Assembly (NCBI GenBank): GCA_021846665.1
Contig: JAJZWM010000007.1
Coordinates: 1 to 35,136 of the forward strand
Reading direction: 5' to 3'
DNA length: 35,136 nucleotides
Origin: Nanobdellota archaeon
Lineage (GTDB): Archaea; Nanobdellota; Nanobdellia; Parvarchaeales; Parvarchaeaceae
Numbering within the stretch: the first letter of the stretch is position 1; every line of letters begins with the position of its first letter. The notes below the pieces were generated by a model. It did not search any database and was not told where the DNA came from. It saw nothing but the letters and a program-made list of their open reading frames with translations. Positions 14,995 through 32,329 of this stretch are shown here, piece by piece. Position numbers and translations under genes: made by a program.

Positions 14995-15267
14995 ATGGAA
15001 AAATATGAATTTGAAAGGCTTTTGAATAGTGCTAGAATAGAATTAGATGAGGTAGAATCGGCTTCTATAGAGAAAGATATAAAAGATATATTGGTTTTTT
15101 TTGATAAACTTAAGAACATTTCTTTAGACGATGAGGAGCTTGCATTTCATCCAGTTGAGATTCCTGAGAAACTTAGGGAAGATAATACTGAAAATAAAAA
15201 TAAAATAGAGGATGTATTTTACAATGCAGAAAACTACAGATTTTATTTTTTGGGACCAAAGATATGA
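14995..15267 (+). CDS. gatC: Asp-tRNA(Asn)/Glu-tRNA(Gln) amidotransferase subunit C
   Basis: FERLLNSARIELDEVE...DILVFFDKLKNISLDDEELAFHPVEIPEKLREDNTE; immediately upstream of gatA with ATGA overlap. Confidence 0.88.
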   Translation: MEKYEFERLLNSARIELDEVESASIEKDIKDILVFFDKLKNISLDDEELAFHPVEIPEKLREDNTENKNKIEDVFYNAENYRFYFLGPKI

Positions 15268-16592
15268 CTAGCAGTTTTCTTAGTTTTGAAGATAAAGGGT
15301 ATAAAGATTTTATTTCGCGGCTTAAACAGGAGAATGAAAAACTTAATGCATTTAATTTTATAGACGAAAATGATAAGAGTGGGAAAATAATAAGCGTTAA
15401 AGATAACATCTGCGTGAAAGGAATGCCGGCTACAGCTTCTTCTAAAATATTGCAAGGTTACATACCTGGATTTAATGCTACTGTAATTGAAAGACTGGAA
15501 AAAGCGGGTTTTTCAGTAATAGGCAAAACAAATATGGATGAATTTGGATTTGGAAGCTTTGGTTTGAATTCAGAACACTACGCAAGGAACCCATTCAATG
15601 AAGAATATATTACAGGAGGTTCTAGTTCCGGGAGTGCAGTAGCAACTGCCTTAATAAAAGGGCATGTCTCAATTGCAGAGTCAACCGGCGGTTCAATATC
15701 AGCTCCTGCTTCGTTCTGCGGTGTCGTAGGGTTAACTCCAACATACGGCGTGATATCAAGATATGGGTTAATAGATTATGCAAGCTCTCTGGACAAAATA
15801 GGTTTTATGGGGAAAAGTGTTGATAATATAAGAGAAGTGATGGAAAAAACTATTGGCGGCGATCCAAAAGACACAACTTCTCTATCAGTTACAATATCAA
15901 ATAAAAAACCAAACAAGTTATATGTAATTGATAATCTAATGACTGGAGTTAATGAAGTAATAAAGGATAGATTCGAAGATTTGTTAGCTAAATTATCTGC
16001 AAAAGGTTATAAGATTGAACATACAAAAATAGATTACTTAGAATATTCTGTTCCTGCTTATTATATAATATCAATGTCAGAAGCTTCAACAAACCTTGCA
16101 AAATATCAGGGATTCAAGTATGGTTTTAAAGTTAAAGATTTTTCATTGAATTATAATGAATTTTTTATGTCTGCAAGGAAGCAGTTTGGAAAAGAAGCAA
16201 AAAGGAGAGTAATACTTGGAACATTTATAAGGAGTAAAAGTATAACGCAGAGATACTATGAGAAAGCACTTGCTATAAGGCATGCACTAATAGCAAGGAT
16301 GGACAAAATACTTAAAGAGGGGTTTATTATAATGCCAAGTATGCCCATATTTACTCCTAAGATAAGTGAAGTAAAAGACATAAGCCCGGTAGAGGCTTAC
16401 TCTATGGACATGCTTACTGTCCCACCAAACTTATGTGGTTTTCCACATATGTCCTTCCCGTATTTTTATGAGAAAGGCATGCCTATCGGAGCTCAAATAA
16501 TAACGAATCATTTTAATGATTATTCTCTCTTGGACTTCTTATCAGAATGGGAAAGCGATTTTAAGTATAAGTTTAAGGAGGAAATAAGCTGA
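15264..16592 (+). CDS. gatA: Asp-tRNA(Asn)/Glu-tRNA(Gln) amidotransferase subunit A
   Basis: Amidase signature: SVKDNICVKG (catalytic Lys), TGGSSSGSAVA, STGGSISAPASFCGVVGLTPTYGVISRYGL. Confidence 0.95.
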   Translation: MTSSFLSFEDKGYKDFISRLKQENEKLNAFNFIDENDKSGKIISVKDNICVKGMPATASSKILQGYIPGFNATVIERLEKAGFSVIGKTNMDEFGFGSFGLNSEHYARNPFNEEYITGGSSSGSAVATALIKGHVSIAESTGGSISAPASFCGVVGLTPTYGVISRYGLIDYASSLDKIGFMGKSVDNIREVMEKTIGGDPKDTTSLSVTISNKKPNKLYVIDNLMTGVNEVIKDRFEDLLAKLSAKGYKIEHTKIDYLEYSVPAYYIISMSEASTNLAKYQGFKYGFKVKDFSLNYNEFFMSARKQFGKEAKRRVILGTFIRSKSITQRYYEKALAIRHALIARMDKILKEGFIIMPSMPIFTPKISEVKDISPVEAYSMDMLTVPPNLCGFPHMSFPYFYEKGMPIGAQIITNHFNDYSLLDFLSEWESDFKYKFKEEIS

Positions 16593-17878
16593 TGAAAATA
16601 GGATTGGAAGTACATGTTGCGTTACCTACAAAAACAAAGCTCTTCTGTTCAGATCTGGCTTATGAAAATCAGGAGGAGCCTAATTCAAATGTATGTCCCG
16701 TATGTTTGGGTTTGCCAGGGGCAAAGCCAGTTTTGAATAAAAAGGCATTGGAGATATCAGTAAGTATATCCAAGGCCTTGAACTGTGAAATAACTGAAAA
16801 AACATGGTTTGTTAGAAAAGTTTACTTTTATCCAGATTTGCCAAAAGGATATCAGATAACACAGTTGGATGGAGCAGTAGGAATTAAAGGGTATGTCGAT
16901 TTAAATGGTAAAAGGATAAGAATAAGGAGGGTACAGATAGAAGAGGATCCGGCAAGAATAATACACGAAAAAGATTATTCTTTAATAGATTTTAATAGGT
17001 CTGGCGTGCCTTTAAATGAAATAGTTACAGAACCAGATATAACAAGCTTAGAGGAGCTTAAGAATTTTATAGAAGAGCTTAGGAGCATACTTTACTATCA
17101 GGGGGTTAACATAAACCAGGAACTGAAGACGGATCTAAATATATCTCTGGCAGAAAATAGAGTAGAGATAAAAAATGTTACTGGAGTTAGAAATTTGATT
17201 GCCGCAGCAGAATATGAAATAAAAAGGCAAACGGCTCTTATAAATGAAGGCAAGAAAATAAATAAAGAAACAAGGTCATATAAGGAAGATTCAAATGAAA
17301 CAGTTTCTTCAAGAGAAAAAGAAACAGAAGAAGAATATGGTTTCACTTTTGAGCCAGATTTAACATTTTATGACACTACAAAGTTAGAAATACAAAAAGC
17401 AATAATTGCAAGCGTCGTCGCAAAGGAACTTGCATATAAAAATGAGTATAGAGAAAAGACAATAAGAGAATTGATACTATTTAATAAGAAAAATCTATTA
17501 CTGTTAACAAGTTTAAGTAAAGAAGAATTCAAAAAAGGGGTTTCTTTAATAGAGAAATTTGCATCTTTTGGTATAGAAGACTACTCCGAGGAAGATTTTA
17601 AGAAAATGATTAAACAAGATATAAGCTCTATTGAAAAGGGGGAATTTTTGAGGCTTCTAGGCAAGACAAGTAAATATGAAGAAAAAGCGGATGAAAAAGA
17701 GATAGAGAAAGGAATAATTGAAATGTTATCTCAGGATAAAAACTTACTTAAAAGAGGTATTACTGATGGAAAAGCTATGAGTTTTATGATAGGGAAAGTA
17801 AAGGAAAAATATCATGTTACTGGAAAGGAAGCTGCAGATATTATAAAGAAAGTAATAAAAAGCATGCTAAATAACTAA
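16592..17878 (+). CDS. gatB: Asp-tRNA(Asn)/Glu-tRNA(Gln) amidotransferase subunit B
   Basis: IGLEVHVALPTKTKLFC, PNSNVCPVCLGLPGAKPVLNKKA, YFYPDLPKGYQITQ, DFNRSGVPLNEIVTEPDI, VEIKNVTG; C-terminal YqeY-like helical tail. Confidence 0.95.
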   Translation: MKIGLEVHVALPTKTKLFCSDLAYENQEEPNSNVCPVCLGLPGAKPVLNKKALEISVSISKALNCEITEKTWFVRKVYFYPDLPKGYQITQLDGAVGIKGYVDLNGKRIRIRRVQIEEDPARIIHEKDYSLIDFNRSGVPLNEIVTEPDITSLEELKNFIEELRSILYYQGVNINQELKTDLNISLAENRVEIKNVTGVRNLIAAAEYEIKRQTALINEGKKINKETRSYKEDSNETVSSREKETEEEYGFTFEPDLTFYDTTKLEIQKAIIASVVAKELAYKNEYREKTIRELILFNKKNLLLLTSLSKEEFKKGVSLIEKFASFGIEDYSEEDFKKMIKQDISSIEKGEFLRLLGKTSKYEEKADEKEIEKGIIEMLSQDKNLLKRGITDGKAMSFMIGKVKEKYHVTGKEAADIIKKVIKSMLNN

Positions 17879-17882
17879 GAAT

Positions 17883-19655
17883 ATGGATGTATACTGTGGT
17901 GATTTATCTGCTGAACTAGTAGGTAAAGAGATTACTTTGAATGGATGGTGTAGATATATTCGTGATCACGGCGGAAAATTATTTGTAGATTTAGCAGATA
18001 TAACTGGAATAGCTCAGGTTGTTTTTGATGGCCCACTTTTAGAGCAGTCAAAGACTCTAGGGAGAGAGTATGTTATACGGATAAAAGGTTTAGTCAAAGA
18101 GAGAGACAAAGAAACTATCGACGAAGAAAATCCTACAGGAAAGTTCGAAGTAATTGCTAAAGAATTGATTATAATAAACAAAGCTGAAACTCCTCCATTT
18201 GAAATAACTGAGGAAAAAGGTAAGTTTCTCGCTGCAGAAGACTTAAGGTTGAAATATAGGTATTTAGACCTAAGAAGAAAAGAAATGATAAACAATATAA
18301 TCTTTAGGGATAAGATTACCAAGCTTGCAAGACAATTTTTCTGGAAAGAAGGTTTTCTTGAACTAGAAACACCTATGCTAGTAAAAGATACCTATGAAAC
18401 TGGAGCAAGACCATTTATAGTACCTTCTAGGATTAAAAAAGGAGCTTTTTATTCTCTGCCACAGTCCCCGCAGATATATAAGCAGCTGATAATGGTAGCG
18501 GGCTTGGATAAATATTTCCAAGTGGCAAGAGCATTTCGGGATGAAGACCAAAGAGAAGACAGACAACCTGAGTTTACTCAGATTGATTTAGAAGTTTCAT
18601 TTAAGGATGAAAATTATATCATGTCTTTAATAGAAAGCCTTATAGAAAAGATACTAAAATCAATAATGGACGAAGATGTAAAACTACCTTTAAAGCGGTT
18701 GCAATATTACGAGGCTATAAACAGGTATGGTAGTGATAAGCCAGACTTAAGATATGACTATGAGATAATTGATATTACTGATACTATGAAGAAAAGTAAT
18801 TATAACACCGTAAAAAGGGTTCTAGAAAGTAATGGAAAAGTAAAAGCGATTTCATTTTCAGCAGACTTTGGTAAGTCAGAAAGAATAACAAAAGATTTCA
18901 TGCTTGACGTAATAGAAATTGCAAAGGCAAATGGATTAAAAGGCCTTACATGGCTATTCATTGAAAATGGAAAATTAAAATCTATACCCGAGGCAATTGC
19001 AAGTTCGCTGTTAAACATAGAGAATGAACTGATCTCAGCTCTTAAAGCAAAAAATGGCGATATAATAATATTTGCAGCCGATTTAGATGATACGCTTCTT
19101 TTGCAGGCATTGGGAAAAATAAGAAAAGTAATAGGTGATAAAATAGGAAAATTCAACATAAAGTTTTCTTTTCTCTGGGTCGTTGACTTTCCATTGTTTG
19201 AGGTTGACAGCATAACTAAAAAACTAAAGCCATCTCATAATCCATTCACAGCTCCATTTACAGAAGATATAAAATTGTTAGAAAAAGAACCTGAAAAAGT
19301 AAGAGGTAGGCAGTTTGACCTTGTTTTAAATGGAAATGAAATAGGGGGTGGGGCTGTTAGAATAAACAACGCCGATTTGCAGCTTAAAATACTTAAAATG
19401 ATAGGCATGAAAGAGGAGGAAGCTTTGGATGCCTTTGGTTTCCTTATAAATGCTCTTAAGTTCGGTGCTCCAGAGGACATAGGTTTTGCAATAGGCCTGG
19501 ACCGTTTTGTTACTATTTTGAAGGAAAAGCAAAGTATAAGGGATTTTATCTTGTTTCCAAAGACTAAAAGCTTCGATTCACCGATAGATGGCTCGCCGAC
19601 TAAAATAGAAGATAAAAGGATTTTAGAGGATTATAAACTGAAAAGAATTGAGTAG
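17883..19655 (+). CDS. aspS: Aspartyl-tRNA synthetase, bacterial type with GAD insertion domain
   Basis: GWCRYIRDHGGKLFVDL, LRYRYLDLRR-like LKYRYLDLRRKEM, SPQIYKQLIMVAGLDKYFQVARAFRDEDQREDRQPEFTQIDLE (motif 2), LVLNGNEIGGGAVRI, IGLDRFVTILKEKQSIRDFILFPKT (motif 3). About 590 aa with insert, the bacterial architecture. Confidence 0.93.
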   Translation: MDVYCGDLSAELVGKEITLNGWCRYIRDHGGKLFVDLADITGIAQVVFDGPLLEQSKTLGREYVIRIKGLVKERDKETIDEENPTGKFEVIAKELIIINKAETPPFEITEEKGKFLAAEDLRLKYRYLDLRRKEMINNIIFRDKITKLARQFFWKEGFLELETPMLVKDTYETGARPFIVPSRIKKGAFYSLPQSPQIYKQLIMVAGLDKYFQVARAFRDEDQREDRQPEFTQIDLEVSFKDENYIMSLIESLIEKILKSIMDEDVKLPLKRLQYYEAINRYGSDKPDLRYDYEIIDITDTMKKSNYNTVKRVLESNGKVKAISFSADFGKSERITKDFMLDVIEIAKANGLKGLTWLFIENGKLKSIPEAIASSLLNIENELISALKAKNGDIIIFAADLDDTLLLQALGKIRKVIGDKIGKFNIKFSFLWVVDFPLFEVDSITKKLKPSHNPFTAPFTEDIKLLEKEPEKVRGRQFDLVLNGNEIGGGAVRINNADLQLKILKMIGMKEEEALDAFGFLINALKFGAPEDIGFAIGLDRFVTILKEKQSIRDFILFPKTKSFDSPIDGSPTKIEDKRILEDYKLKRIE

Positions 19656-20840: not shown

Positions 20841-21668
20841 TTAGACAAGCTTCTTTCCCAATTTGTTGTCTACTCCAAGTATAATTTCTATATACATGCT
20901 ATCTATTGCATCAGGAGGAACCTGCATTCTATCTCCAACTTCAGATACAACCATTGGAAATGCATATGGCGGATTATTTTTATAATTTAATACAGAATCT
21001 TCAAAGTAACCTATCCCTACTACAACATCTCCAGATCTAGGTCTAGGAAAACCATAATAATCTGCTATTTTGTCAGTTATTTTTGAAGAAATTAGGCCAG
21101 CACCCTGCCCTATATTCTTTATAGTCTTGTAATTAATAGTCGGCTTAATGTTTGTTTTATCATTATTTGAAAGTTTTCTAAGCAAGTAAGCTCCATTCGT
21201 AAAGTAATCACTTACCTTGCCTTTTTCTAAACCAACTAAGTAATCTAAATTCACAACACCAAGGAATTCCTTATTTCCTCTTTTTACTGGGCCAGTTTCC
21301 TTATCTAAATTATTAAACTCTTCAATATTTATTCCAATAGATATAGGATTAATGTAAGCTACACCAGGTATCATGCTATCATACACATTTTTCAAGTCCT
21401 GTTTATCTCCCTTTTTGTTGCCTTTTAAAGAAATAGGTATAAGTTCATAAACGCCATGAAAAAAGTAAGATTCTCTGCCTTTCTCTTCTTTTATTCTACC
21501 AACCAATGTGACGGCATCTCCGGGATTTTTTGCACTTATGCTTTTTTCCAGTCCATTTTCTTTTGTCCATATCTCATTGCTTGTTACACCAGAATTAAGA
21601 CTAAAGTAAACAGCACTCGAACCTTCAGATATTAGCTTTTCAAGTCTATGTTGATTTATCATATTCAA
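20841..21668 (-). CDS. Hypothetical protein, no recognised family (275 aa, Cys-free)
   Basis: Long ORF, 4-nt overlap with upstream 21665..22513, no cysteine. Confidence 0.75.
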   Translation of the reverse strand: MNMINQHRLEKLISEGSSAVYFSLNSGVTSNEIWTKENGLEKSISAKNPGDAVTLVGRIKEEKGRESYFFHGVYELIPISLKGNKKGDKQDLKNVYDSMIPGVAYINPISIGINIEEFNNLDKETGPVKRGNKEFLGVVNLDYLVGLEKGKVSDYFTNGAYLLRKLSNNDKTNIKPTINYKTIKNIGQGAGLISSKITDKIADYYGFPRPRSGDVVVGIGYFEDSVLNYKNNPPYAFPMVVSEVGDRMQVPPDAIDSMYIEIILGVDNKLGKKLV

Positions 21669-22513
21669 TTGTTCTCCTCTTCTTTTTCAATGGAATATGC
21701 TCCTTTAAGGTCAAGAATGCTCATTAAGTCCTTTACTCTTTCCTTAGTCATTGGCTTTGTTGATACTACACTTACTCTTGGTCCGACTAAAAGTCCTTTA
21801 ATTGTTCCTCCCAAAATTGCCTGCATTGCTTTGTAAGCTATTCCGTGCCTATACAAAACACTATTATCTCTTAAGTCGATACTTCTGTAATCATAGCTAC
21901 CTCCCCATCTATAAGGAGAAAGAAATTCTACTTGAAGGTCATCTGCATAAACTCTCTCATTGAACCATTTTCTCTCGAAATCACCAAAATGAATTCTTTT
22001 ATCTGTTGAATTCTGTAGTACTTTTAAAGCTAGGTCATGCATGTTTTGATGATAAGCCTTTTTTCTGTCTATAAGCCTGTAACCATATTCTATCTTTAAT
22101 CTAAACATCTTTTGTATGTCTTCCTTACCAGTTGCGTCATACGTTTTCAATGTACCAGCATCTACAATTTCATATCTTAAAAGCTTAAATGGACCAAGGT
22201 TCTTGTGTGGTTCTAAACCAGCCTGCTCCAATTGGTTTAATCTCCTTATCTCTGAAAGTTTATCTTCCAAACCTACAACTTTTGCGCCTGGCATTTCTGA
22301 AGCTACCTGTACCTTTGCAATTTCATTGTAAGCCATCAAATCTGCTATGTTGCCAGTTCCCATTTCTCTTTGCAATGAATTAGTGAAATTCTGCAGATTA
22401 TATTTTCGATTATCATTCCATTGTGTATAATCAAAGCTTTTCCCTATCGCACTAGGGCCATTTGTATTTACTGCTTTGTACCCTACTCCAGAAACAAATC
22501 CTATGACTTTCAT
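21665..22513 (-). CDS. Hypothetical protein, no recognised family (282 aa, Cys-free)
   Basis: Long ORF with strong SD (TAGGAGGTATTTTATG); no cysteine. Confidence 0.78.
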   Translation of the reverse strand: MKVIGFVSGVGYKAVNTNGPSAIGKSFDYTQWNDNRKYNLQNFTNSLQREMGTGNIADLMAYNEIAKVQVASEMPGAKVVGLEDKLSEIRRLNQLEQAGLEPHKNLGPFKLLRYEIVDAGTLKTYDATGKEDIQKMFRLKIEYGYRLIDRKKAYHQNMHDLALKVLQNSTDKRIHFGDFERKWFNERVYADDLQVEFLSPYRWGGSYDYRSIDLRDNSVLYRHGIAYKAMQAILGGTIKGLLVGPRVSVVSTKPMTKERVKDLMSILDLKGAYSIEKEEENN

Positions 22514-22523
22514 AAAATACCTC

Positions 22524-23522
22524 CTAATAACTCATCCCCATATCAGATCCGGCAGCATATGGGTTAATGCCCAGCATCTTTGCCATATCCTCCGGGTTAA
22601 TTTTACCACTGTTTCCAGTTGTGTTCTTAGACGCGTTCAAAGCAAGATATAAACCTGTTGTGGCATCTGGATTTACATTATTGAAAGAGTTGACAGAGTG
22701 CGTTTTATCTAAGTTGGAAAACTGTTTACTACTTTCTTCTGACAGTATGTTAGTCATCGAATACATAAGTCTCTTTTTGTCTTCTTCCTTTAAGTCTGAA
22801 GACAAATCTTTGAAAAGCTTATTTGTATCATCCATCATCTTATCTATCTCTTCATCTTTAAGGTTAAGTTTTCTGAAAGCCTCTTTATTGTAAGGTATCT
22901 TCTCAAAGTATTCTCCTAATCTTGAAAAGTCATTGTTTTTTAAGTCCGCGTTTATGTCCTTTGTAAGCTGGCTAAGTTTTATATTTTGGTTGTAAGAATC
23001 GTTTTTGCTTAACTCCTGTTTAAGGTTATTTGCGAAGGGGCTGAACATTATCATAGGATCATTCAGAGAATTTTGCACCATGTTATGGTAATGGTCTGGA
23101 GATAGGCTAGCTTTTATTTTAGTGTATTCTGCTGTTAGCAATGGTGTAACCTGATTTATTGCTCTTTGCATATACTGTTTTTTCTTTTCAGTGTCTACAG
23201 ACTTATCTGTAAGAAGCGAATTTAAACCCAACAAATAACCGTTCATTATCTTTGAGTCGTCTTTAAGCGGCGTTTGCTGAAGATAAGCACCTAAGCTTGA
23301 AACAAAGTTTTTGTTTAATTCTGAGAAATTGTCATATCTTTTGTTTTCAAATTGCTTTATGCTTCTTACTAAAACATTCAATGCATTATAATAATCCCCA
23401 TTTTCACGTATTAAATCGTCTAATGTCTGTTTTTTATTGGTTTCTCCCATATCTGTTTCAGGCATAGGCTGTTGTGCCTGTTCTTTATTATCATTTTCAT
23501 TTGGGTTTTTAGCTGCTTTCAT
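22524..23522 (-). CDS. Hypothetical helical protein with Q/N/E-rich N-terminal tail (332 aa, Cys-free)
   Basis: N-term MKAAKNPNENDNKEQAQQPMPETDMGETNKKQ; long predicted helices; C-term INPYAAGSDMGMSY. Confidence 0.78.
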   Translation of the reverse strand: MKAAKNPNENDNKEQAQQPMPETDMGETNKKQTLDDLIRENGDYYNALNVLVRSIKQFENKRYDNFSELNKNFVSSLGAYLQQTPLKDDSKIMNGYLLGLNSLLTDKSVDTEKKKQYMQRAINQVTPLLTAEYTKIKASLSPDHYHNMVQNSLNDPMIMFSPFANNLKQELSKNDSYNQNIKLSQLTKDINADLKNNDFSRLGEYFEKIPYNKEAFRKLNLKDEEIDKMMDDTNKLFKDLSSDLKEEDKKRLMYSMTNILSEESSKQFSNLDKTHSVNSFNNVNPDATTGLYLALNASKNTTGNSGKINPEDMAKMLGINPYAAGSDMGMSY

Positions 23523-23564
23523 GTTCTATATATGATGTTTAACTATATAAATACTTTACTATTA

Positions 23565-24134
23565 TTATGTAGATAAATTTTTATAGCTATTAAAAGCCAT
23601 TGATAAGTCATCTAAGAATGCCCTTCTCGCAGACGGAAAGCGCATAGGAAAGGAAGGGTGAAAAGTAACAAGGCACTTAAACTGTCTTCCGTCAAGTGTA
23701 ATATCTATAAATCTGCTTTTTATCTCGCTTAAATGCTTGAATTCAATGCCCAGAGAAGAAGCTGCCGAAGTTCCCAGTGCTAATATAAGGTTTGGCTGTA
23801 TAATAGAAAGTTGTCTTATTAAATAAGGCCTACAAGTAATTATCTCTTCCTTTTTTGGTTTCCTATTGTTTGGCGGTCTGCACTTTACAGCGTTTGTTAT
23901 AAAAATCATTGATCTATTTATTCCAAGGCTTTCCAGAGATTTTGAGAGGAATTTGCCAGACATGCCTATAAAGGGCCTTCCTTGTATATCTTCATTTTTA
24001 CCAGGCGCCTCTCCTATTATTACAATTCTGGCTCTTTCATTTCCTTCTCCAGGCACTGCATTATTTCGTTTTATACATAAATCACATAGTGTGCATTTTT
24101 CTATTTCCTTAGCAACATCAGTCAGGTTTTCCAC
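23565..24134 (-). CDS. Family 4 uracil-DNA glycosylase (Fe-S)
   Basis: CTLCDLCIKRNNAVPGEGNERARIVIIGEAPGKNEDIQGRPFIGMSGK; TNAVKCRPPNNRKP; CRPYL; VTFHPSFPMR. Confidence 0.94.
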   Translation of the reverse strand: MENLTDVAKEIEKCTLCDLCIKRNNAVPGEGNERARIVIIGEAPGKNEDIQGRPFIGMSGKFLSKSLESLGINRSMIFITNAVKCRPPNNRKPKKEEIITCRPYLIRQLSIIQPNLILALGTSAASSLGIEFKHLSEIKSRFIDITLDGRQFKCLVTFHPSFPMRFPSARRAFLDDLSMAFNSYKNLST

Positions 24135-25009
24135 AGTTTATTAATCTCTTCTACCAACTTTTCATCCACTTTTCCGTTTATTGAACTCTCATTAATGCTG
24201 CCATTGAAATTTAGTGTCTTTAATTTTTCTCCAAGTTCCAAAAGATCGATTTTACAATTTTTCCCTTTCATGATTATTATCTGCTGTAAATTTGTTATAC
24301 CTATATATGTCTCTGCATGCGTTTTTATAAAATAATTAAGTTCTCCGTAGAATTTAGAGATCTTTACGCCTTTTAATACTATTAGATTATGGCTGTTCTC
24401 TAGTAATCTATAAAGCATTTCTTTTTCTTCTTTTTCTATTTCAATCATCCTTTCATTTTCGTTTTTTATGTACTCCGAAAGCTTCTCTGGTACAAAGTGT
24501 CTGTACATCGCAGATTCAACTACTTCATTTTTTATCTGCAGAAGAAAAATCAAAGCATCATCCCCAGCAAGAAATTCTATCTCAGTTTCACCACCAAGGT
24601 AGGAAATGCGTTTTACGGTAAATAGTATTATCTCACTTGTCTGTTTTACATGTCTGTGTTTGCAGGCTGAAAAGTCATACTGGCCTATAGTTACTACTCT
24701 TACCTGTTTCTCTTTATCGAGTCTATCTTCATTGAACCTCAATTTTGGGTTTTTCCTCATTGCATCATCTAAATTCTCAAAGTTTTCTTCTGTTACAGGG
24801 AGGTTTTCAATAATTTTTGCATTAACAGTTTTTTCTGCTTCAATTATTTTTTCAAAAGAGATTATCTCTTTTACATATGCCTTCCCGATATTGTCAGCTC
24901 TGTAAGTGTCAGCTTTTCTCACATGTATATCTAATCCTTGTTCCTGCAGGGCTCTTGCGAACATATGCTCGGCGGTATGAAGCCTGGCTCCCTTAATACT
25001 TTCTTCCAT
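24122..25009 (-). CDS. AlaX-like trans-editing protein / AlaRS editing-domain homolog
   Basis: HTAEH (HxxxH) and CKHRH (CxxxH) zinc/editing motifs; SAD-like core followed by coiled coil and possible DHHA1-like C-terminus. Confidence 0.8.
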   Translation of the reverse strand: MEESIKGARLHTAEHMFARALQEQGLDIHVRKADTYRADNIGKAYVKEIISFEKIIEAEKTVNAKIIENLPVTEENFENLDDAMRKNPKLRFNEDRLDKEKQVRVVTIGQYDFSACKHRHVKQTSEIILFTVKRISYLGGETEIEFLAGDDALIFLLQIKNEVVESAMYRHFVPEKLSEYIKNENERMIEIEKEEKEMLYRLLENSHNLIVLKGVKISKFYGELNYFIKTHAETYIGITNLQQIIIMKGKNCKIDLLELGEKLKTLNFNGSINESSINGKVDEKLVEEINKLWKT

Positions 25010-25068
25010 TTCTATTGTAATTTTACTAAAGATTTAACTTTTTTGTTAAAAACCTAAGCTATATAAAA

Positions 25069-25092
25069 TATTTTAACTAGTATTTTAACTGG
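25069..25092. repeat. 12-bp imperfect tandem repeat in the divergent intergenic region
   Basis: TATTTTAACTAG / TATTTTAACTGG (11 of 12 identical) between the divergent AlaX-like gene and aspS2. Confidence 0.6.
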
Positions 25093-25172
25093 TAATGCAA
25101 GGTATATCTTTAATCTTAATTTTTAATCTTTTTAAATTATGGAAATACATTTATTAATCTAGAGACAGAAGG

Positions 25173-26462
25173 ATGTTTATGATAATCAATAAAAATGGAG
25201 ATATTGAGATAAAAGGATGGGCAGAAAACGTCAGGAATCTTGGAGGCCTAGCTTTTATTACATTGAGGGATATAAACGGAAAATATCAGATAACAGTTTC
25301 TAAAAATTCAAATTCAGAACTATTTGAAAAACTTCCGGATATAAAAGCTGAATCAGTGCTTGAGGTAGTAGGAGAAAAAAAGAACAATGAAAAGGCTGTT
25401 AACGGCTATGAAATAATACCTAAAAAGTTAGAGATACTGACAGTGGCGGAGCAGCCAGTCCCTTTAAATTTAAGCGAGAAGGTGCAATCCTCCTTGGACA
25501 AAGAGCTTGATTTTAGATTTTTAAGTTTAAGGAAGCCAAAGACAGCAGCTATCTTTAAAATACAAAGCACTGTAAGCAATGCGATAACAAAGTTTTTCGA
25601 AGACAATGGGTTTTACCAGATACATTCCTCAAAGATAATATCACAGGCAACAGAGGGAGGAGCAAATGTTTTTCAGATTATTTACTTCGACAGAACTGCT
25701 TTTCTTGCCCAATCACCACAGTTTTATAAGCAGATGATGATGGCTGCAGGTTTCGAGAAAGTCTTTGAAATAGGGCCTGTTTTCAGGGCTGAACCTCATC
25801 ATACCAGCAGACATTTGACAGAGTATACAAGTGTAGATTTAGAAATGAGTTTTATAAATTCGTATGAAGATGTGATGACAGTAATGGAAAATCTTATGGT
25901 AAGGATTTTCAAGGAAGTTAAGGAAAGAAATAGGAAAGATCTGGAACTTTACGGCATAGAATTAGAGGAGCTGAAAACTCCCTTTCCAAGAATAACGATA
26001 AAGGAAGCAGGTGAAATACTCAAGAAATACGGAAACAAGTTAAAAGACGATGGGGATATTGACCCTGAAGGGGAAAGGATAATGGGCCAGTATGTAAAAG
26101 AGAAATACGGAAGTGACTTCTTCTTCTTGACTGAATTTCCATGGTCAATTGCACAATTCTATCACATGAAGAAAGAAGGAAATGAAGATGTTACAAACAG
26201 GGCTGATTTAATATATAAAGGACTAGAAATAACAACACTGGCACAGAGAGAGCATAGGTATGATGTTCTTATAAAACAACTAAATGAAAAGAATTTAGAT
26301 CCCGAGAAATTCAAGTTTTACACCGATTTTTTCAGATACGGAGTACCTCCACACGGAGGTTCAGGCACAGGCTTAGAGAGGATAGTAAAACAGATGCTTA
26401 ATCTTGAGAATGTAGCCGAGGCAACGCTTCTTCCAAGAACGCCGGATAGACTAGTGCCTTAA
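25173..26462 (+). CDS. Aspartyl-tRNA synthetase, archaeal type (no GAD domain)
   Basis: IKGWAENVRNLGGLAFITLRD, DFRFLSLRKPK, SPQFYKQMMMAAGFEKVFEIGPVFRAEPHHTSRHLTEYTSVDLEM (motif 2), GLEITTLAQREHRYDVL, GVPPHGGSGTGLERIVKQMLNLENVAEATLLPRTPDRLVP (motif 3). Confidence 0.9.
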   Translation: MFMIINKNGDIEIKGWAENVRNLGGLAFITLRDINGKYQITVSKNSNSELFEKLPDIKAESVLEVVGEKKNNEKAVNGYEIIPKKLEILTVAEQPVPLNLSEKVQSSLDKELDFRFLSLRKPKTAAIFKIQSTVSNAITKFFEDNGFYQIHSSKIISQATEGGANVFQIIYFDRTAFLAQSPQFYKQMMMAAGFEKVFEIGPVFRAEPHHTSRHLTEYTSVDLEMSFINSYEDVMTVMENLMVRIFKEVKERNRKDLELYGIELEELKTPFPRITIKEAGEILKKYGNKLKDDGDIDPEGERIMGQYVKEKYGSDFFFLTEFPWSIAQFYHMKKEGNEDVTNRADLIYKGLEITTLAQREHRYDVLIKQLNEKNLDPEKFKFYTDFFRYGVPPHGGSGTGLERIVKQMLNLENVAEATLLPRTPDRLVP

Positions 26463-26496
26463 TAAAATAGCTTCTATTCAAAGTTATTTCTGGTGC

Positions 26497-27345
26497 TTAT
26501 CTATACATGTCTGCTGGAGGTTTACTATCAGGGTGATATGTTTCTTCTTCGTCTTGGCCTAAAGAAAACACCTTTTCATTTGGGTTTTTCTTTGCCATTT
26601 CTGCGACATTATATATAAAATCGAGTCCCTTTTCTTTTTTATCATGCACCGTCATTTTTACTATCTCTTTTCCTTCTTCATCTTTGATGCTTTCCATTTG
26701 GTATATTAGATTGTTCTTTGTGTCCACTATCGAAAAAATATTGGAAACAGATACAAAGTAATCCGCATCTTCATTTTTAAGGCTGCTTAGGTAATTTATT
26801 ATTTGTTTACCTTCTTTTCCAAGTTTAGATAATTCGGTTAAATAAAATTCAACTCTATTTTGGCTGTTTGCCAATATCACTTTTACCGCTTTGTCCTTTA
26901 TCTTGTATGAAACATCATACATTTTAGCGTATTTTAAATCATCTTTGGTTTCAACCTTCTCTGCTTTTAAATAAAGGTTATGGAGATTTTTTGCCTGATT
27001 GCCGTTTATCTTTTTTTGTGTTATATTATATTCTATTTTCAGGCCTTCGAAATTTTGATTTAAGTATTTTACTTCTTTGTTGGTAACATCAACGAACATA
27101 ACTGGGTGTTTAAGAGCAGCATAAAGTATGTCTATTTTATCTAAATCCATTCCATTTATCTTTTCAAGATATTTTGGATTATTTGGAGAGATACTAAGGT
27201 AGTAAAGTCCGAATCCAACTGGATCCTTTACTAATTTTAGGTCCTTTTTCATCTTTGCAGAAAATCTGAGAATGCTAGCTGCAGTCTTGTCTATTTCTGC
27301 TTCTCCATCACTTATAATGTTATCAAGATTATTTTCATCGCTCAT
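26497..27345 (-). CDS. Hypothetical protein (282 aa, Cys-free)
   Basis: Long ORF with SD (GGGAGGTAG); no recognised family; C-term HPDSKPPADMYR. Confidence 0.72.
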   Translation of the reverse strand: MSDENNLDNIISDGEAEIDKTAASILRFSAKMKKDLKLVKDPVGFGLYYLSISPNNPKYLEKINGMDLDKIDILYAALKHPVMFVDVTNKEVKYLNQNFEGLKIEYNITQKKINGNQAKNLHNLYLKAEKVETKDDLKYAKMYDVSYKIKDKAVKVILANSQNRVEFYLTELSKLGKEGKQIINYLSSLKNEDADYFVSVSNIFSIVDTKNNLIYQMESIKDEEGKEIVKMTVHDKKEKGLDFIYNVAEMAKKNPNEKVFSLGQDEEETYHPDSKPPADMYR

Positions 27346-27442
27346 ATTCTACCTCCCTTATTCAAGAAAAAAGCACTTTTAATCAAAACTGGCATTTTTT
27401 CTTATTGAGTAAAAAGAATGCAGCTAATATTTAAGCTTTAAA

Positions 27443-28084
27443 TTAAGCGGTTTTCTGTGTTTTTAAATCGTCTATAAGGTCTCTTAATTCTTTTATGCTA
27501 TCACTTATCGCAGGTATTAATCTATCTATTACCTTTTCAAAGGCCTGTAATTCAACGTTAACATCTGAAATAGTCTTATTATATTCTTCGGTTTTACCTA
27601 CCATTGTGTTCTGTATACTATCTATTCTCTGATTTAGCTTTTCTAAATTATCTTTTATATTTTCTATCGAGTTAGTATTTATATTTACACTAGATCTCAG
27701 GGAGTTAAGCTCTGTTGCAGAGCTTTTCCATTTTTCATTTATTATCTGTTCAAGTATCTGTTGTATACTTTCAAGGTTTTGATTACTAATTGTGTTATTA
27801 TTGTTCTCATAGCTTTGTCTGTTTTCCTGAATACTTGGCTGTTGTATGTTCTGTACTCTTTGAACAGGCTCCTCTTGCATTTGTTGTATCGGTTGCTGTG
27901 CAGTCTGTTTTCCAGCGTTGCTTTTAAATGCATTTAAAAGTGCATTTTTGATTGTGGTGCTATCATAACCTTGCTGCCTTAAACTATCTATTATATCCTG
28001 TTGGCTCATACCGTTGTTAAGCATAGAACTTATGTCTGGTACATCATTTTCGTCTTTTTTCTTAAATGCATTCATTAAGTTCAT
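27443..28084 (-). CDS. Coiled-coil protein with N-terminal short helical (UBA-like) module and Q-rich linker
   Basis: SMLNNGMSQQDIIDSLRQQGYDSTTIKNALLNAFK; Q-rich linker QPIQQMQEEPVQRVQNIQQPSIQ; C-terminal heptad-rich region. Confidence 0.75.
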   Translation of the reverse strand: MNLMNAFKKKDENDVPDISSMLNNGMSQQDIIDSLRQQGYDSTTIKNALLNAFKSNAGKQTAQQPIQQMQEEPVQRVQNIQQPSIQENRQSYENNNNTISNQNLESIQQILEQIINEKWKSSATELNSLRSSVNINTNSIENIKDNLEKLNQRIDSIQNTMVGKTEEYNKTISDVNVELQAFEKVIDRLIPAISDSIKELRDLIDDLKTQKTA

Positions 28085-28087
28085 ATT

Positions 28088-28453
28088 TTAGCTCCATTTC
28101 TTACTATTCATATAGTCATTTACAATTTTAATAACGTCTTCTTTATTTAAAAACCTTGAAGGATCTACGAAGCTCAGATATTTTTCTATTACTTTTATAT
28201 CCTGTGCCTTCGCATATGTTTCAGACTGTCTTTCAAGTCTATTTAAAGCATCATCAAGCTCAAAGATCTTTGTTTTACTGCTAGAAAGTTCGTTGTTTAT
28301 CTCCTGTAATGCAACTTTTATTTCTTTGTATTTTTCAAGGTTATTCTGATCAACCATCTTGATAGTATCTCTAAGCTGAGAAATTCTCTGCTCGAATATC
28401 TTTAAAGATTCTCTAAGTTCTACTACATTTCTTGTTAAATCTGTCTGCTCCAT
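28088..28453 (-). CDS. Small coiled-coil protein (121 aa)
   Basis: Heptad-like VVELRESLKIFEQRISQLRDTIKMVDQ...; 3 nt upstream of 27443..28084 gene. Confidence 0.75.
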   Translation of the reverse strand: MEQTDLTRNVVELRESLKIFEQRISQLRDTIKMVDQNNLEKYKEIKVALQEINNELSSSKTKIFELDDALNRLERQSETYAKAQDIKVIEKYLSFVDPSRFLNKEDVIKIVNDYMNSKKWS

Positions 28454-28683
28454 TCAATTATATTACTATAGTTGTTTTTATGTCTTTTTGTCCTACATTT
28501 TATAGAGGAAAACAGTTGTAATTTTCTCTCTTTAAATTTAAGTATGGTATCGAATTTATCTGTCATAACAAAGAAAGAGGTTTTATCTAATGTAGCGATA
28601 AAGCTTTGAAAATAAAGGCAAAAAGAATAATTCATACCATACCTTGTTTGTCTTAATTTCATACCGAAAGTACGAAAAGCCAT
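28435..28683 (-). CDS. Possible small basic protein (82 aa), uncertain
   Basis: Only ORF filling the 28454-28683 gap; overlaps next gene by 19 nt; no recognised family. Confidence 0.35.
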   Translation of the reverse strand: MAFRTFGMKLRQTRYGMNYSFCLYFQSFIATLDKTSFFVMTDKFDTILKFKERKLQLFSSIKCRTKRHKNNYSNIIEWSRQI

Positions 28684-28709: not shown

Positions 28710-30125
28710 ATGGTTAATTTAGTGCTGTTTGATGCAGGACTGATGGGTTACTCATTAGCAGTACATATCCTTTTGGTTACTGTCGGAATGACATTGCCAA
28801 TAATAATGAGTATAGCAGAATTTGTTTCGATAAAATACAAGGTAAAAATATATGACGTGCTAGCTAAAAGACTTGCAAATGCGCTTATAATATTCTTTGC
28901 AGTTGGAACTGCAAGCGGGGTTGTAGTTGCTATTGAGCTTTTTGTTCTCTGGCCCAAGTTTATTTCTGTATTAGGCCAGGTCGGTATACTTCCGCTTTAT
29001 ATGGAGGTCTTTGCATTTTTCACCGAAGCCATCTTTTTAGGGATATACATTTATTTCTGGAATAAATTCAAAAGCAGGATTAGGCACTGGCTTCTTTCAG
29101 TTTTCATTGCGATAGGCGCAGTAATGTCAGGAGTTTTCATAACAATGATAAATGCATTTATGAATACACCAAAAGGTTTCAATATTCCCTATTATCTAAG
29201 TACAAGTAAAATAATAGACGTTAATCCATTTGCGGTTTTGAATACGCCCACAACATGGGTAGAAATTGGGCACGTAATCGGATCCACAATATTCGCGGGT
29301 TCAGCCTTCTTTCTGGCGTACTTTGCATATAAATTGCTAAAGACGAAGGGAACTGAAAGAGAGTACTATAAAAAAGCTGCGAAAATCGCAGCCGCGATAG
29401 TTATAATTGCTATAATCCTGACAGTCATATTAGGTATAGAATCGATTACAGCACTGATGGTTTATCAGCCAGAAAAATTCGCTGCATTAGAAATGAACTT
29501 TAATTCAGGGCCACATGTAGCAGAGGTACTTGGAGGTTTCCTTGTAAACAACAAAACTGTCGATTCAATAAATATTGCTGGTTTGATGAGTTTCCTTGCC
29601 ACTGGAAAGTTTAATGGAGTTATAGCAAGCAATGATTCATTATTGTCATATGCAAAGAGTACCTGGCCTCCAGTAAGTGTAGTACACAATACATTTGATA
29701 CAATGGTTGCTATTGGCGTTTTGATAGGTATTATTATGGTTATATTCTTAATAATCTGGCTTTTGAATGTAAATAAAATAAGAAATAAATTCAAATCAAA
29801 CAAGTTTTTCAGTAAATTATTATCAAGAAAGATATTTTCTGATCCTTTTGACAATCCTCTAATACTGAAGGTATTGATAGTGATCGGAGTACTTGCCGCT
29901 TTTCTTTTAGAGGATGGATGGGTAACTGATGAAGTAGGGAGGCAACCATGGATAATATATAATGTTATGACAGTTTCTGCAGCAGCTAATACCTCTCCTT
30001 CTGTCATTCCTGTCGGAATAGCAATAATATTCTTTTATATCTTAGTCTTGCCCGCCACTGTTTTATTCGTTAGAAGGGTAATGAAGAAAAGAGACCTTAA
30101 TAAAGAGCTGAGGATTAAACCATGA
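28710..30125 (+). CDS. cydA: Cytochrome bd-type quinol oxidase subunit I
   Basis: His-bearing GYSLAVHILLVTVG, LYMEVFAFFTEAIFLGIYIYFW (conserved Glu), TTWVEIGHVIGS (conserved His), MVYQPEKFAALE, GWVTDEVGRQPWIIYNVMT. Confidence 0.94.
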   Translation: MVNLVLFDAGLMGYSLAVHILLVTVGMTLPIIMSIAEFVSIKYKVKIYDVLAKRLANALIIFFAVGTASGVVVAIELFVLWPKFISVLGQVGILPLYMEVFAFFTEAIFLGIYIYFWNKFKSRIRHWLLSVFIAIGAVMSGVFITMINAFMNTPKGFNIPYYLSTSKIIDVNPFAVLNTPTTWVEIGHVIGSTIFAGSAFFLAYFAYKLLKTKGTEREYYKKAAKIAAAIVIIAIILTVILGIESITALMVYQPEKFAALEMNFNSGPHVAEVLGGFLVNNKTVDSINIAGLMSFLATGKFNGVIASNDSLLSYAKSTWPPVSVVHNTFDTMVAIGVLIGIIMVIFLIIWLLNVNKIRNKFKSNKFFSKLLSRKIFSDPFDNPLILKVLIVIGVLAAFLLEDGWVTDEVGRQPWIIYNVMTVSAAANTSPSVIPVGIAIIFFYILVLPATVLFVRRVMKKRDLNKELRIKP

Positions 30126-31033
30126 ACACTTATATAACAATAAATTACGTTTTACTTGCTATAGTATTTACTTTTCTTTTTGTCGAGGGTATGTCGGCCA
30201 TTTCATTTATATATGATAGAAAGAGTTTGCCGAATGTTAAAAAATATCTTGATCCCGTATGGGGCATAGTTGGAACTTTCGTTGTATTTTTCGTTGTAAA
30301 TACCGAAGTTATTTATCCGGCGATAATGCCATCAATTGATTATATGTATGTTTTCCCCATACTTTTAGCGACACTACTATTTATAGGAAGAAACGTTTTT
30401 CTTATCTTTTCAGAATATATTTGGAAAGATTCTAAATTCAGCCAGTTAATGCTTGCAAGGATATACTCTCTGATAACGTTTATAATAATAATTATACTGC
30501 TTTCTATATTCATTTCTATAATATCAGGTGTAGGTACAAATTCAACATTAACAGGATTTTCAACCACTGTATTTTTATCTAATCCGTATATTCTTGGTTT
30601 CATAGCTGGAACTCTCCTTATAGCACTTGGTTTATCGTTTGTTTTCTATAAAATAGAAAAGATGAAGTTTTTATCGCCGATATCTACCATTTTTGGTCTT
30701 TTATTGTTTGTATTCTCTATAAACAGGTTGGGCCTAAATGTAAACTATATAACTTATGTACTTGGAGCGGCAATAGCATTAATTTCAATTTTTTATTATG
30801 CTACAGGAAAAGCAAGAAGAGAAACGGTTTTTATAGCAGTATTCCTTTCTGTTATATCAATTAACTTTCTAAATTACGGAAAGGTTTTTGGAGTAGATTC
30901 ACTGACTTCATACCTGAATAATTCTGCAGTTTCTTATGCTTCCATACTTGTAACTGTTGTAGGTGGATTATTGCTTACTGCAATGCTTCTCTTTTTCTTA
31001 TATATGTACAGGCTTCCAAATAAAGAGCAATAA
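30122..31033 (+). CDS. cydB: Cytochrome bd-type quinol oxidase subunit II-like
   Basis: Multi-TM; ATGA overlap with cydA; FLFVEGMSAISFIYDRKSLPNVKKYLDPVWGIVGTFVVFFVVNTEVIYP fits CydB N-terminal region. Confidence 0.85.
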   Translation: MNTYITINYVLLAIVFTFLFVEGMSAISFIYDRKSLPNVKKYLDPVWGIVGTFVVFFVVNTEVIYPAIMPSIDYMYVFPILLATLLFIGRNVFLIFSEYIWKDSKFSQLMLARIYSLITFIIIIILLSIFISIISGVGTNSTLTGFSTTVFLSNPYILGFIAGTLLIALGLSFVFYKIEKMKFLSPISTIFGLLLFVFSINRLGLNVNYITYVLGAAIALISIFYYATGKARRETVFIAVFLSVISINFLNYGKVFGVDSLTSYLNNSAVSYASILVTVVGGLLLTAMLLFFLYMYRLPNKEQ

Positions 31034-31117: not shown

Positions 31118-31531
31118 ATGGGAAAGAATATAAGGCGGGGAAGGACAGGAAACGTTAGATGCGCTTCGTGTGGTCAGATAACCCGAAGAGATAGGGCCGT
31201 TTATCTTTTCAAAGATGGTATAAAGGCATATTACTGCCCAGACTGTGCGAAGAAAATACATGGACAAAGGCTTTACAAAGGTATGCCTAAATATGTAAAA
31301 AGGGTAGGCAGCTCAAAGGTAAAGAGAAAATTCACAATATTTGCAACAGAAGGGGTAGAAAGTCAAATAAGTGAAAATGAAGTTCATGAGGAAACTTCTA
31401 ATGAAAGAGAGGCCGAAGATCTGAAGGAAGATAATCAAGAGAATAATGAAGAAATAGCAGAAAATAGTGAAGAAAAAGAATCAGAAACTAATCAAGAGAA
31501 TAACGAAGAAAATAATCAAAACAGTGAGTAG
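31118..31531 (+). CDS. Zinc-ribbon protein resembling ribosomal protein eS26, with acidic Asn/Glu/Gln-rich C-terminal tail
   Basis: GRTGNVRCASCGQITRRDRAVYLFKDGIKAYYCPDCAKKIHG (two CxxC); tail EDNQENNEEIAENSEEKESETNQENNEENNQNSE. Confidence 0.6.
   Translation: MGKNIRRGRTGNVRCASCGQITRRDRAVYLFKDGIKAYYCPDCAKKIHGQRLYKGMPKYVKRVGSSKVKRKFTIFATEGVESQISENEVHEETSNEREAEDLKEDNQENNEEIAENSEEKESETNQENNEENNQNSE
31432..31511 (+). repeat. Imperfect 23-nt direct repeat in coding sequence of acidic tail
   Basis: TAATCAAGAGAATAATGAAGAAA at 31432-31454 and TAATCAAGAGAATAACGAAGAAA at 31489-31511. Confidence 0.7.
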
Positions 31532-31537
31532 TGGTTC

Positions 31538-32329
31538 ATGGTAACACTAAGAATTTCTGCTTCATTTTTGTGGCTTTTAATTATAGTCATAATAATCTTA
31601 GTTGCGGTTTTCGCATTTGTGAAATTAAATAAAGCGCCAACGACTGTAAGTACAAAATCAATTCCTTCCTCCGTACAGTACGCTTTGGAATATTTTAATG
31701 CAGCGCACAGAAACGAAACAATACTTGTACCTTCGCAATATTATACAGCCGCTAAAGCGCTTTCGATAGATGGCAATAAAGTTGTAGAAAATAACAGTTT
31801 GTATAACTCGATTCTTTTTGGCAACGCAAAATTGCCTATAAACTATAATATATTAATAGACATGGAAAATGCATCTGCTTTGCCTTCTCTGATTTATTTT
31901 CCATATAATTTCACTACTGAGAACCTAAGTAATTCACTTAGAGACTGCGAAGTTGCAAGGAGCAAAATCGATGCATTTGCAGTCTGTTCGGTTTATTCAA
32001 ATATATCAGTTCCGGTATTAAATGGAACTTACATAAACAAAAGTATAAACATCGGGTTTGGCACTTTTGCAGCGTTCCCAAATAGCACAGCCTTGTATGA
32101 GATAAATGGAACAATAACATATAACGGCCAAAATTCTACTTATATTCCTTCAATAAGAATAAATAATACTCCTTCTTACAATGGAATCATGTTTCTATAT
32201 GAAAATACTGCTGCCTTCTATCTTTCTAGGCCAGATTTAAACACATTTTACGGAAAGGAGATGTTTCTTCCAAATTCAACGCTGAAAAATGTTGTAGCAA
32301 ACTTCCTTTCTGTGAGAATAATCTCATAA
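31538..32329 (+). CDS. Predicted membrane-anchored or secreted protein, sequon-rich (263 aa)
   Basis: N-terminal TM LRISASFLWLLIIVIIILVAVFAFV then extracellular-looking region with about a dozen N-x-S/T sequons and two Cys. Confidence 0.75.
   Translation: MVTLRISASFLWLLIIVIIILVAVFAFVKLNKAPTTVSTKSIPSSVQYALEYFNAAHRNETILVPSQYYTAAKALSIDGNKVVENNSLYNSILFGNAKLPINYNILIDMENASALPSLIYFPYNFTTENLSNSLRDCEVARSKIDAFAVCSVYSNISVPVLNGTYINKSINIGFGTFAAFPNSTALYEINGTITYNGQNSTYIPSIRINNTPSYNGIMFLYENTAAFYLSRPDLNTFYGKEMFLPNSTLKNVVANFLSVRIIS

What the first reader, a model, noticed from the sequence alone, without database searches (positions are those of the whole stretch)
20841..28453. Six unrecognised, completely cysteine-free proteins in two co-directional blocks around the second AspRS
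Block 1 (22524, 21665, 20841; 332+282+275 aa) and block 2 (28088, 27443, 26497; 121+213+282 aa) are all minus strand and match no family I recognise. Together they contain zero Cys in about 1,505 residues, while neighbouring housekeeping proteins have Cys. Both blocks include helical or coiled-coil members with Q/N/E-rich disordered tails (22524 and 27443), and 26497 and 22524 end in similar short tails (PPADMYR, GSDMGMSY). This could be one lineage-specific structural assembly, such as a surface, scaffold or secretion-like apparatus. Function is inference.
Basis: partly seen in the sequence, partly recalled or inferred. Interest (0 to 1): 0.62.

Follow-up and report, generated by a model that had tools for sequence, protein, structure and literature searches.

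The report
Two unrelated gene blocks, not one assembly
The six unknown proteins of this tiny symbiotic archaeon are two separate things: one block carries the coiled-coil partners of a pilus machine found in nearly all its relatives, and the other is a family-specific, jointly controlled trio of unknown purpose.

Summary
All six ORFs exist at the stated coordinates and lack cysteine, but that means little: 91 of 242 ORFs of 100 aa or more in a 264 kb sample of this genome are also Cys-free, as are the adjacent AspRS, CydA and CydB. The host is a Parvarchaeota-like DPANN archaeon. The blocks have different distribution, constraint and upstream elements, so one common assembly is not supported.

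Block 2: 27443 is near-universal in the phylum (266/279 genomes). In 80 of 100 genomes where both were listed it lies within 3 kb of a FlaI/TadA-type pilus ATPase (76 head-to-head), with 28088 and TadC. The pair matches the 'CCP' coiled-coil proteins described for DPANN type-IV-pilus loci (PMC11291902). Here it has left that operon and is followed by 26497, a fast-evolving family whose members all share a penultimate-Tyr tail (27/27).

Block 1: 22524, 21665 and 20841 were found only in Parvarchaeaceae and match no family. They form an operon behind an 18-bp promoter-like element. In two relatives where the operon is split, both halves carry that exact element, so the set looks co-regulated. 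20841 folds confidently, with a weak p97/VAT-N resemblance. Its biochemical role is inference.

The parts
28088..28453 (-). 28088: 121 aa coiled-coil protein with conserved C-terminal DP-[ST]-[RQ]-[FY]-L-x-K-[ED]-[DE] motif; first gene of block 2; CCP-type partner of a type-IV-pilus-like machine
   Evidence: In 43 of 55 relatives, next to 27443; dN/dS about 0.02
27443..28084 (-). 27443: 213 aa; N-terminal helical motif, Q/N-rich linker, C-terminal coiled coil; second CCP-type protein
   Evidence: 266 of 279 phylum genomes; within 3 kb of the pilus ATPase in 80 of 100 genomes with both listed, 76 divergent; weak coiled-coil match to reovirus sigma-1, 6gao/6gaj
26497..27345 (-). 26497: 282 aa, fast-evolving protein, third gene of block 2, member of a slot-specific family with a C-terminal penultimate-Tyr tail
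   Evidence: hhalign 77-96% with c40, c74, c75, c124 and a G006 singleton; tail in 27 of 27 family members against 11 of 1,202 other proteins
28474..28487 (-). Conserved AAAGACATAAAAAC sequence upstream of 28088, probable block 2 promoter
   Evidence: Same sequence, with few changes, upstream of 28088 in the relatives compared
22524..23522 (-). 22524: 332 aa, helical, Q/N-rich disordered N terminus; first gene of block 1
   Evidence: 24 of 32 Parvarchaeaceae genomes with a profile; alignment A9
21665..22513 (-). 21665: 282 aa, disordered N terminus, long helix, beta domain, mostly conserved acidic/Asn C terminus; second gene of block 1
   Evidence: 10 of 279 phylum genomes, all Parvarchaeaceae; AF2 model pLDDT 62.6
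20841..21668 (-). 20841: 275 aa (or from ATG at 21662), beta-rich globular protein; third gene of block 1, paired with 21665
   Evidence: AF2 pLDDT 84.4, pTM 0.84; weak Foldseek similarity to p97/VAT N-domains; 17 of 55 relatives
23545..23562 (-). ATAGTAAAGTATTTATAT, BRE/TATA-like promoter element of block 1
   Evidence: Only match in the window and only exact copy in 264 kb of the genome; exact copies before both 22524 and 21665 in G007 and G017

Best explanation
The finding covers two separate units. Block 2 (28088-27443) encodes the two coiled-coil accessory proteins ('CCPs') of the type-IV-pilus-type machine that nearly all members of this DPANN phylum carry. They are most likely cytoplasmic and work on or beside the FlaI/TadA-type ATPase and TadC platform, as adaptor or scaffold, in pilus assembly and so in attachment to the host. 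In Parvarchaeaceae the pair has left the ATPase/TadC operon (in this genome that operon is on another contig) and is followed by 26497, a fast-evolving protein whose conserved C-terminal tail probably docks on a partner. Block 1 (22524-21665-20841) is a Parvarchaeaceae-specific operon of soluble cytoplasmic proteins expressed as one set from a characteristic promoter. It most likely forms one heteromeric complex, with 20841 as a beta-rich adaptor domain and 22524 as a flexible helical part. Shown: distribution, linkage, shared promoter-like element, tail conservation, and the 20841 model. Inferred: cytoplasmic location, complex formation, docking, and the attachment role.
For: 27443 in 266/279 and the ATPase in 266/279 phylum genomes; 80 of 100 within 3 kb, 76 divergent; T2SSE and T2SSF assignments of the neighbours; own ATPase/TadC on contig C19 behind an S53-like protease whose homologue lies downstream of 28088-27443 in G023; same reovirus sigma-1 resemblance as the published CCPs (PMC11291902). 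26497 family and tail. Block 1: family restriction, same 18-bp element before both halves where the operon is split, co-occurrence in 22 genomes, no TM or signal-like stretch.
Against: No direct comparison with the named CCPs (NAR1_03220, NAR1_01690) was possible. Coiled-coil matches to sigma-1 are generic. In Parvarchaeaceae the pair is not beside the ATPase, and no interaction was modelled. The block 1 element could simply be a strong core promoter: near-copies precede a few other genes, and part of the family (G004, G012, G013, G016) lacks it. 20841 was not seen in several genomes that have 21665.
Confidence: 0.72

Rival explanations
1. All six proteins form one lineage-specific surface, scaffold or secretion assembly.
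For: Both blocks lie within 8 kb in close relatives with the same gene order; all six lack Cys and known families.
Against: Distributions differ by orders of magnitude, the upstream elements differ, an opposite-strand AspRS separates them, and the blocks are unlinked in other family members.
Confidence: 0.06
2. 27443/28088 are coiled-coil proteins for some general cell function and neighbour the pilus ATPase only by inherited gene order.
For: They are head-to-head with the ATPase rather than co-transcribed with it; in Parvarchaeaceae they sit elsewhere.
Against: The linkage recurs across dozens of families, and presence of the two genes tracks closely, with largely the same genomes lacking both. 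In this family the pair is still often flanked by proteins with a class-III-signal-like start and, in G023, by the S53-like protease.
Confidence: 0.12
3. Block 1 is a decayed or domesticated viral or mobile element (for example capsid or scaffold proteins).
For: Orphan, family-restricted proteins with a disordered, helical, scaffold-like member; ARMAN cells are often virus-infected (PMC4110969).
Against: No relatives in IMG/VR, no convincing PHROGs or BFVD match, one conserved chromosomal copy under purifying selection, stable housekeeping neighbours.
Confidence: 0.06
4. Block 1 genes are merely neighbours: 21665-20841 is one pair and 22524 an unrelated gene with a similar strong promoter.
For: 22524 is unlinked in about half of the family and interrupted in G011; near-copies of the element precede other genes.
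Against: Exact 18-bp copies at both and nowhere else in 323 kb of G017; co-occurrence in 22 genomes.
Confidence: 0.2

Closest known systems
CCP (coiled-coil protein) genes of cluster-2 DPANN type-IV-pilus-like loci (PMC11291902)
   Same: Two coiled-coil genes beside a CpaF/TadA-type ATPase and TadC, same sigma-1 (6GAO) resemblance, DPANN-wide
   Different: In Parvarchaeaceae the pair has moved away from the ATPase/TadC operon and is followed by 26497-type proteins. That paper's list of lineages with these loci does not name Parvarchaeota
Archaellum accessory proteins FlaC/D/E, and arCOG07564, the coiled-coil protein of a haloarchaeal T4P locus (PMC4858521)
   Same: Soluble, partly coiled-coil proteins encoded with a FlaI-like ATPase; possible functional analogues
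   Different: No FlaC/D/E Pfam match among the families listed; divergent gene arrangement; no sequence kinship shown
N-terminal domains of p97/VAT/Pex1-Pex6 (double-psi barrel type)
   Same: Recurrent top Foldseek targets for the 20841 model
   Different: No sequence match, no AAA domain, E above 0.001 and low TM-scores; a hint only

Membership tests
DPANN T4P-locus CCPs (PMC11291902) | Predicted coiled-coil structure | tested here: met
   Profiles of both match many coiled-coil chains, including sigma-1 6gao
DPANN T4P-locus CCPs (PMC11291902) | Gene up- or downstream of pilus ATPase (CpaF) and TadC | tested here: met
   Met by orthologues across the phylum (80 of 100 within 3 kb); not met by the window copy itself, whose ATPase/TadC operon is on another contig
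DPANN T4P-locus CCPs (PMC11291902) | Sequence homology to NAR1_03220 and NAR1_01690 | not testable with these tools
Archaellum FlaC/D/E | Match to FlaC or FlaD/E family models | tested here: inconclusive
   None for window 27443 and none among the families listed for 28088 or for the alignments, but those lists are cut at 25
Type IV pilus machine | Linked secretion-type ATPase (PF00437) and platform protein (PF00482) | tested here: met
   PF00437 above cut-off for the ATPase, PF00482 weak, below cut-off, for TadC; TadA/FlaI-like but far below equivalog cut-offs
p97/VAT N-domain (20841) | Significant fold match | tested here: inconclusive
   Best hits E 0.004-0.07, probability 0.4-0.87 for most, TM-score 0.37 or less
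Viral structural proteins (block 1) | Homologues in viral collections | tested here: not met

The most novel reading that the evidence does not exclude
Block 1 encodes the building parts of a Parvarchaeaceae-specific cytoplasmic structure, for instance the unexplained tubular structures seen inside ARMAN cells by cryo-tomography (PMC4110969). 22524 would be the flexible helical subunit and 21665/20841 the core.
Probability: 0.06. Interest if true: 0.85.

Novelty: new variant of a known kind. Interest (0 to 1): 0.45.

Why it matters
DPANN archaea live attached to host cells, and their pilus-like machine is a prime suspect for attachment. The phylum-wide head-to-head linkage of two coiled-coil proteins with its ATPase makes them a core, testable part of that machine and ties Parvarchaeota to it. 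Block 1 is a compact, apparently co-regulated, family-specific set in acid-mine archaea whose cells contain unexplained structures, so it is a short list for finding what those are made of. The case also shows that absence of cysteine is a poor marker of shared function in such genomes.

Tried and rejected
Cys-freeness as a signature: rejected as genome-wide background. Kinship between the blocks or between the 26497 and 22524 tails: profile comparisons negative. Viral origin of block 1: IMG/VR, PHROGs and BFVD searches gave nothing convincing. Fold of 21665: model too weak, no match. Pfam hits such as Phage_int_SAM_5 (22524), DUF7651 (26497) and Apolipoprotein (27443) all fall below cut-off and were taken as chance or coiled-coil noise. 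First search for related loci attempts with wide alignments failed for lack of conserved stretches.

Full report
OBSERVATION. The window is contig C2 of a 725 kb genome. Named relatives carrying 21665 are Candidatus Parvarchaeota / Nanoarchaeota MAGs, so the host is a Parvarchaeum-like DPANN archaeon. All six ORFs exist as stated, on the minus strand. They have no cysteine, no family above cut-off, and dN/dS of about 0.02-0.23 where it could be estimated against two relatives, so they are real genes under purifying selection.

The Cys signal is weak. In 264 kb of this genome Cys is 0.67% of residues and 91 of 242 ORFs of at least 100 aa have none. The AspRS between the blocks and the neighbouring CydA and CydB are also Cys-free. 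Orthologues of four of the six proteins contain Cys in some relatives.

DISTRIBUTION SEPARATES THE BLOCKS. Among 55 genomes searched, 27443 is found in 44 and 28088 in 43, reaching most families of the class. 21665 is found in 22, 22524 in 18, 20841 in 17 and 26497 in 9; the first three are confined to the family and 26497 to close members of the genus. With profiles over the phylum, 27443 is in 266 of 279 genomes and 21665 in 10 of 279, all in this family. Within the family 22524 is in 24 of 32 genomes. Constraint differs too: dN/dS is about 0.02-0.03 for 28088 and 27443 where measurable, about 0.1 for block 1, and 0.16-0.23 for 26497.

BLOCK 2 IS PART OF A PILUS-TYPE MACHINE. In most of the roughly 20 genera examined outside the family genus, 27443-28088 stand head-to-head with a gene of about 760 aa (T2SSE ATPase, PF00437) followed by one of about 690 aa (T2SSF/TadC-like) and are mostly flanked on the other side by two or three multi-TM proteins of about 190 aa. 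The ATPase resembles TadA and FlaI but lies far below the equivalog cut-offs. The ATPase profile hits 266 of 279 genomes. In the 100 genomes where both genes were among the listed matches, 80 have them within 3 kb and 76 of these are divergent (the lists were cut at about 150 best matches each).

In this genome the ATPase/TadC pair lies on contig C19 behind an S53-like secreted protease (the protease assignment is my reading of the sequence). In G023 the homologue of that protease lies downstream of 28088-27443. Proteins with an archaeal class-III-signal-like start (SALEYMMTYGWAIL) and LamG-like architecture lie near the pair in several family members.

A 2024 paper (PMC11291902) describes 'CCP' coiled-coil genes next to CpaF and TadC in cluster-2 DPANN, with resemblance to reovirus sigma-1 (6GAO). 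27443 gives the same resemblance. I therefore read 27443/28088 as these CCPs. Direct comparison with the named proteins was not possible. Their mechanism, as adaptor or scaffold at the ATPase/TadC base, is inference by analogy with archaellum FlaC/D/E and the T4P-linked coiled-coil protein of haloarchaea (PMC4858521).

26497. In Parvarchaeaceae the slot between 27443 and AspRS is often filled by one or two proteins of 110-310 aa that differ strongly between species. Profile comparison links 26497 with c40, c74, c75, c124 and a singleton from G006 at 77-96% probability, and c36 indirectly through c74 (91%), while control pairs with unrelated families stay below 2%. All 27 members end in [M/L/F/S/G]-Y-x, against 11 of 1,202 other proteins. 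One of the 27, a second G006 singleton, is linked only through c75 (90%). The pattern was defined after seeing the data, so the contrast is descriptive, but a penultimate Tyr kept in a family this divergent suggests a docking tail.

BLOCK 1 IS A CO-REGULATED SET. 21665 and 20841 are adjacent wherever both were seen in the loci read. 22524 precedes them in the near relatives and is unlinked elsewhere. Directly upstream of 22524 lies ATAGTAAAGTATTTATAT, a BRE/TATA-like element, often with CTACA before and TCAT after it. In G007 and G017, where 22524 and 21665-20841 are on different contigs or far apart, exact copies stand before both. In 323 kb of G017 these two are the only exact copies, and in 264 kb of the window genome the only exact copy is at 22524. 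A one-mismatch copy precedes one other gene in each sample. 21665 and 22524 co-occur in 22 genomes (Fisher p 0.005, uncorrected for phylogeny and draft gaps, with unequal search depth). No such element lies at block 2, which has a different conserved upstream sequence.

STRUCTURES. 20841 models well (pLDDT 84.4, pTM 0.84). Its best PDB matches are repeatedly p97/VAT N-domains and Pex1/6, but only weakly, and viral structures give nothing convincing. 21665 models poorly (62.6) and matches nothing. None of the three proteins has a clear signal-like or TM-like stretch, so a cytoplasmic complex is my working reading.

VERDICT. One assembly of six is not supported. Block 2 is a displaced, slightly extended version of a known DPANN pilus module. 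Block 1 is a new, family-specific, apparently co-regulated set whose function is open. A speculative link is to the unexplained cytoplasmic tubes of ARMAN cells (PMC4110969).

Noticed in passing
window 17883-19655 and 25173-26462: Two class II synthetases of the AspRS group: a 590 aa form with a GAD domain (bacterial type) behind a GatB gene and probable GatC and GatA genes (14995-17878), and a 429 aa form without GAD (archaeal type) between the two blocks.
   Followed up: no
window 28710-31033: Cytochrome bd oxidase subunits (CydA PF01654; CydB weak) stand head-to-head with the coiled-coil pair; in the closest relatives they are in the same neighbourhood.
   Followed up: partly
window 31118-32329: A zinc-ribbon protein followed by a one-TM protein, conserved beside the coiled-coil pair through much of Parvarchaeaceae (clusters c11 and c8); function unknown.
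   Followed up: partly
L186:7199-9619 and L191:4026-6422: S53-like secreted protease with a C-terminal TM stretch, directly before the pilus ATPase in this genome and downstream of the coiled-coil pair in G023; possibly a processing enzyme or adhesin of the same system.
   Followed up: partly
L115:753-2330 and equivalents in other loci: Two or three tandem multi-TM proteins of about 190 aa beside 27443 in most genera outside Parvarchaeaceae, with no Pfam family above cut-off; not seen beside the pair in Parvarchaeaceae.
   Followed up: no
L140:7923-8759 (G011): The 22524 homologue is interrupted by an in-frame TAG while 21665 and 20841 stay intact; decay or sequencing error.
   Followed up: no
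L149:8171-9112 and L150: In one subgroup of the genus a protein of about 310 aa that looks transglutaminase-like by eye precedes 21665; no Pfam match.
   Followed up: no
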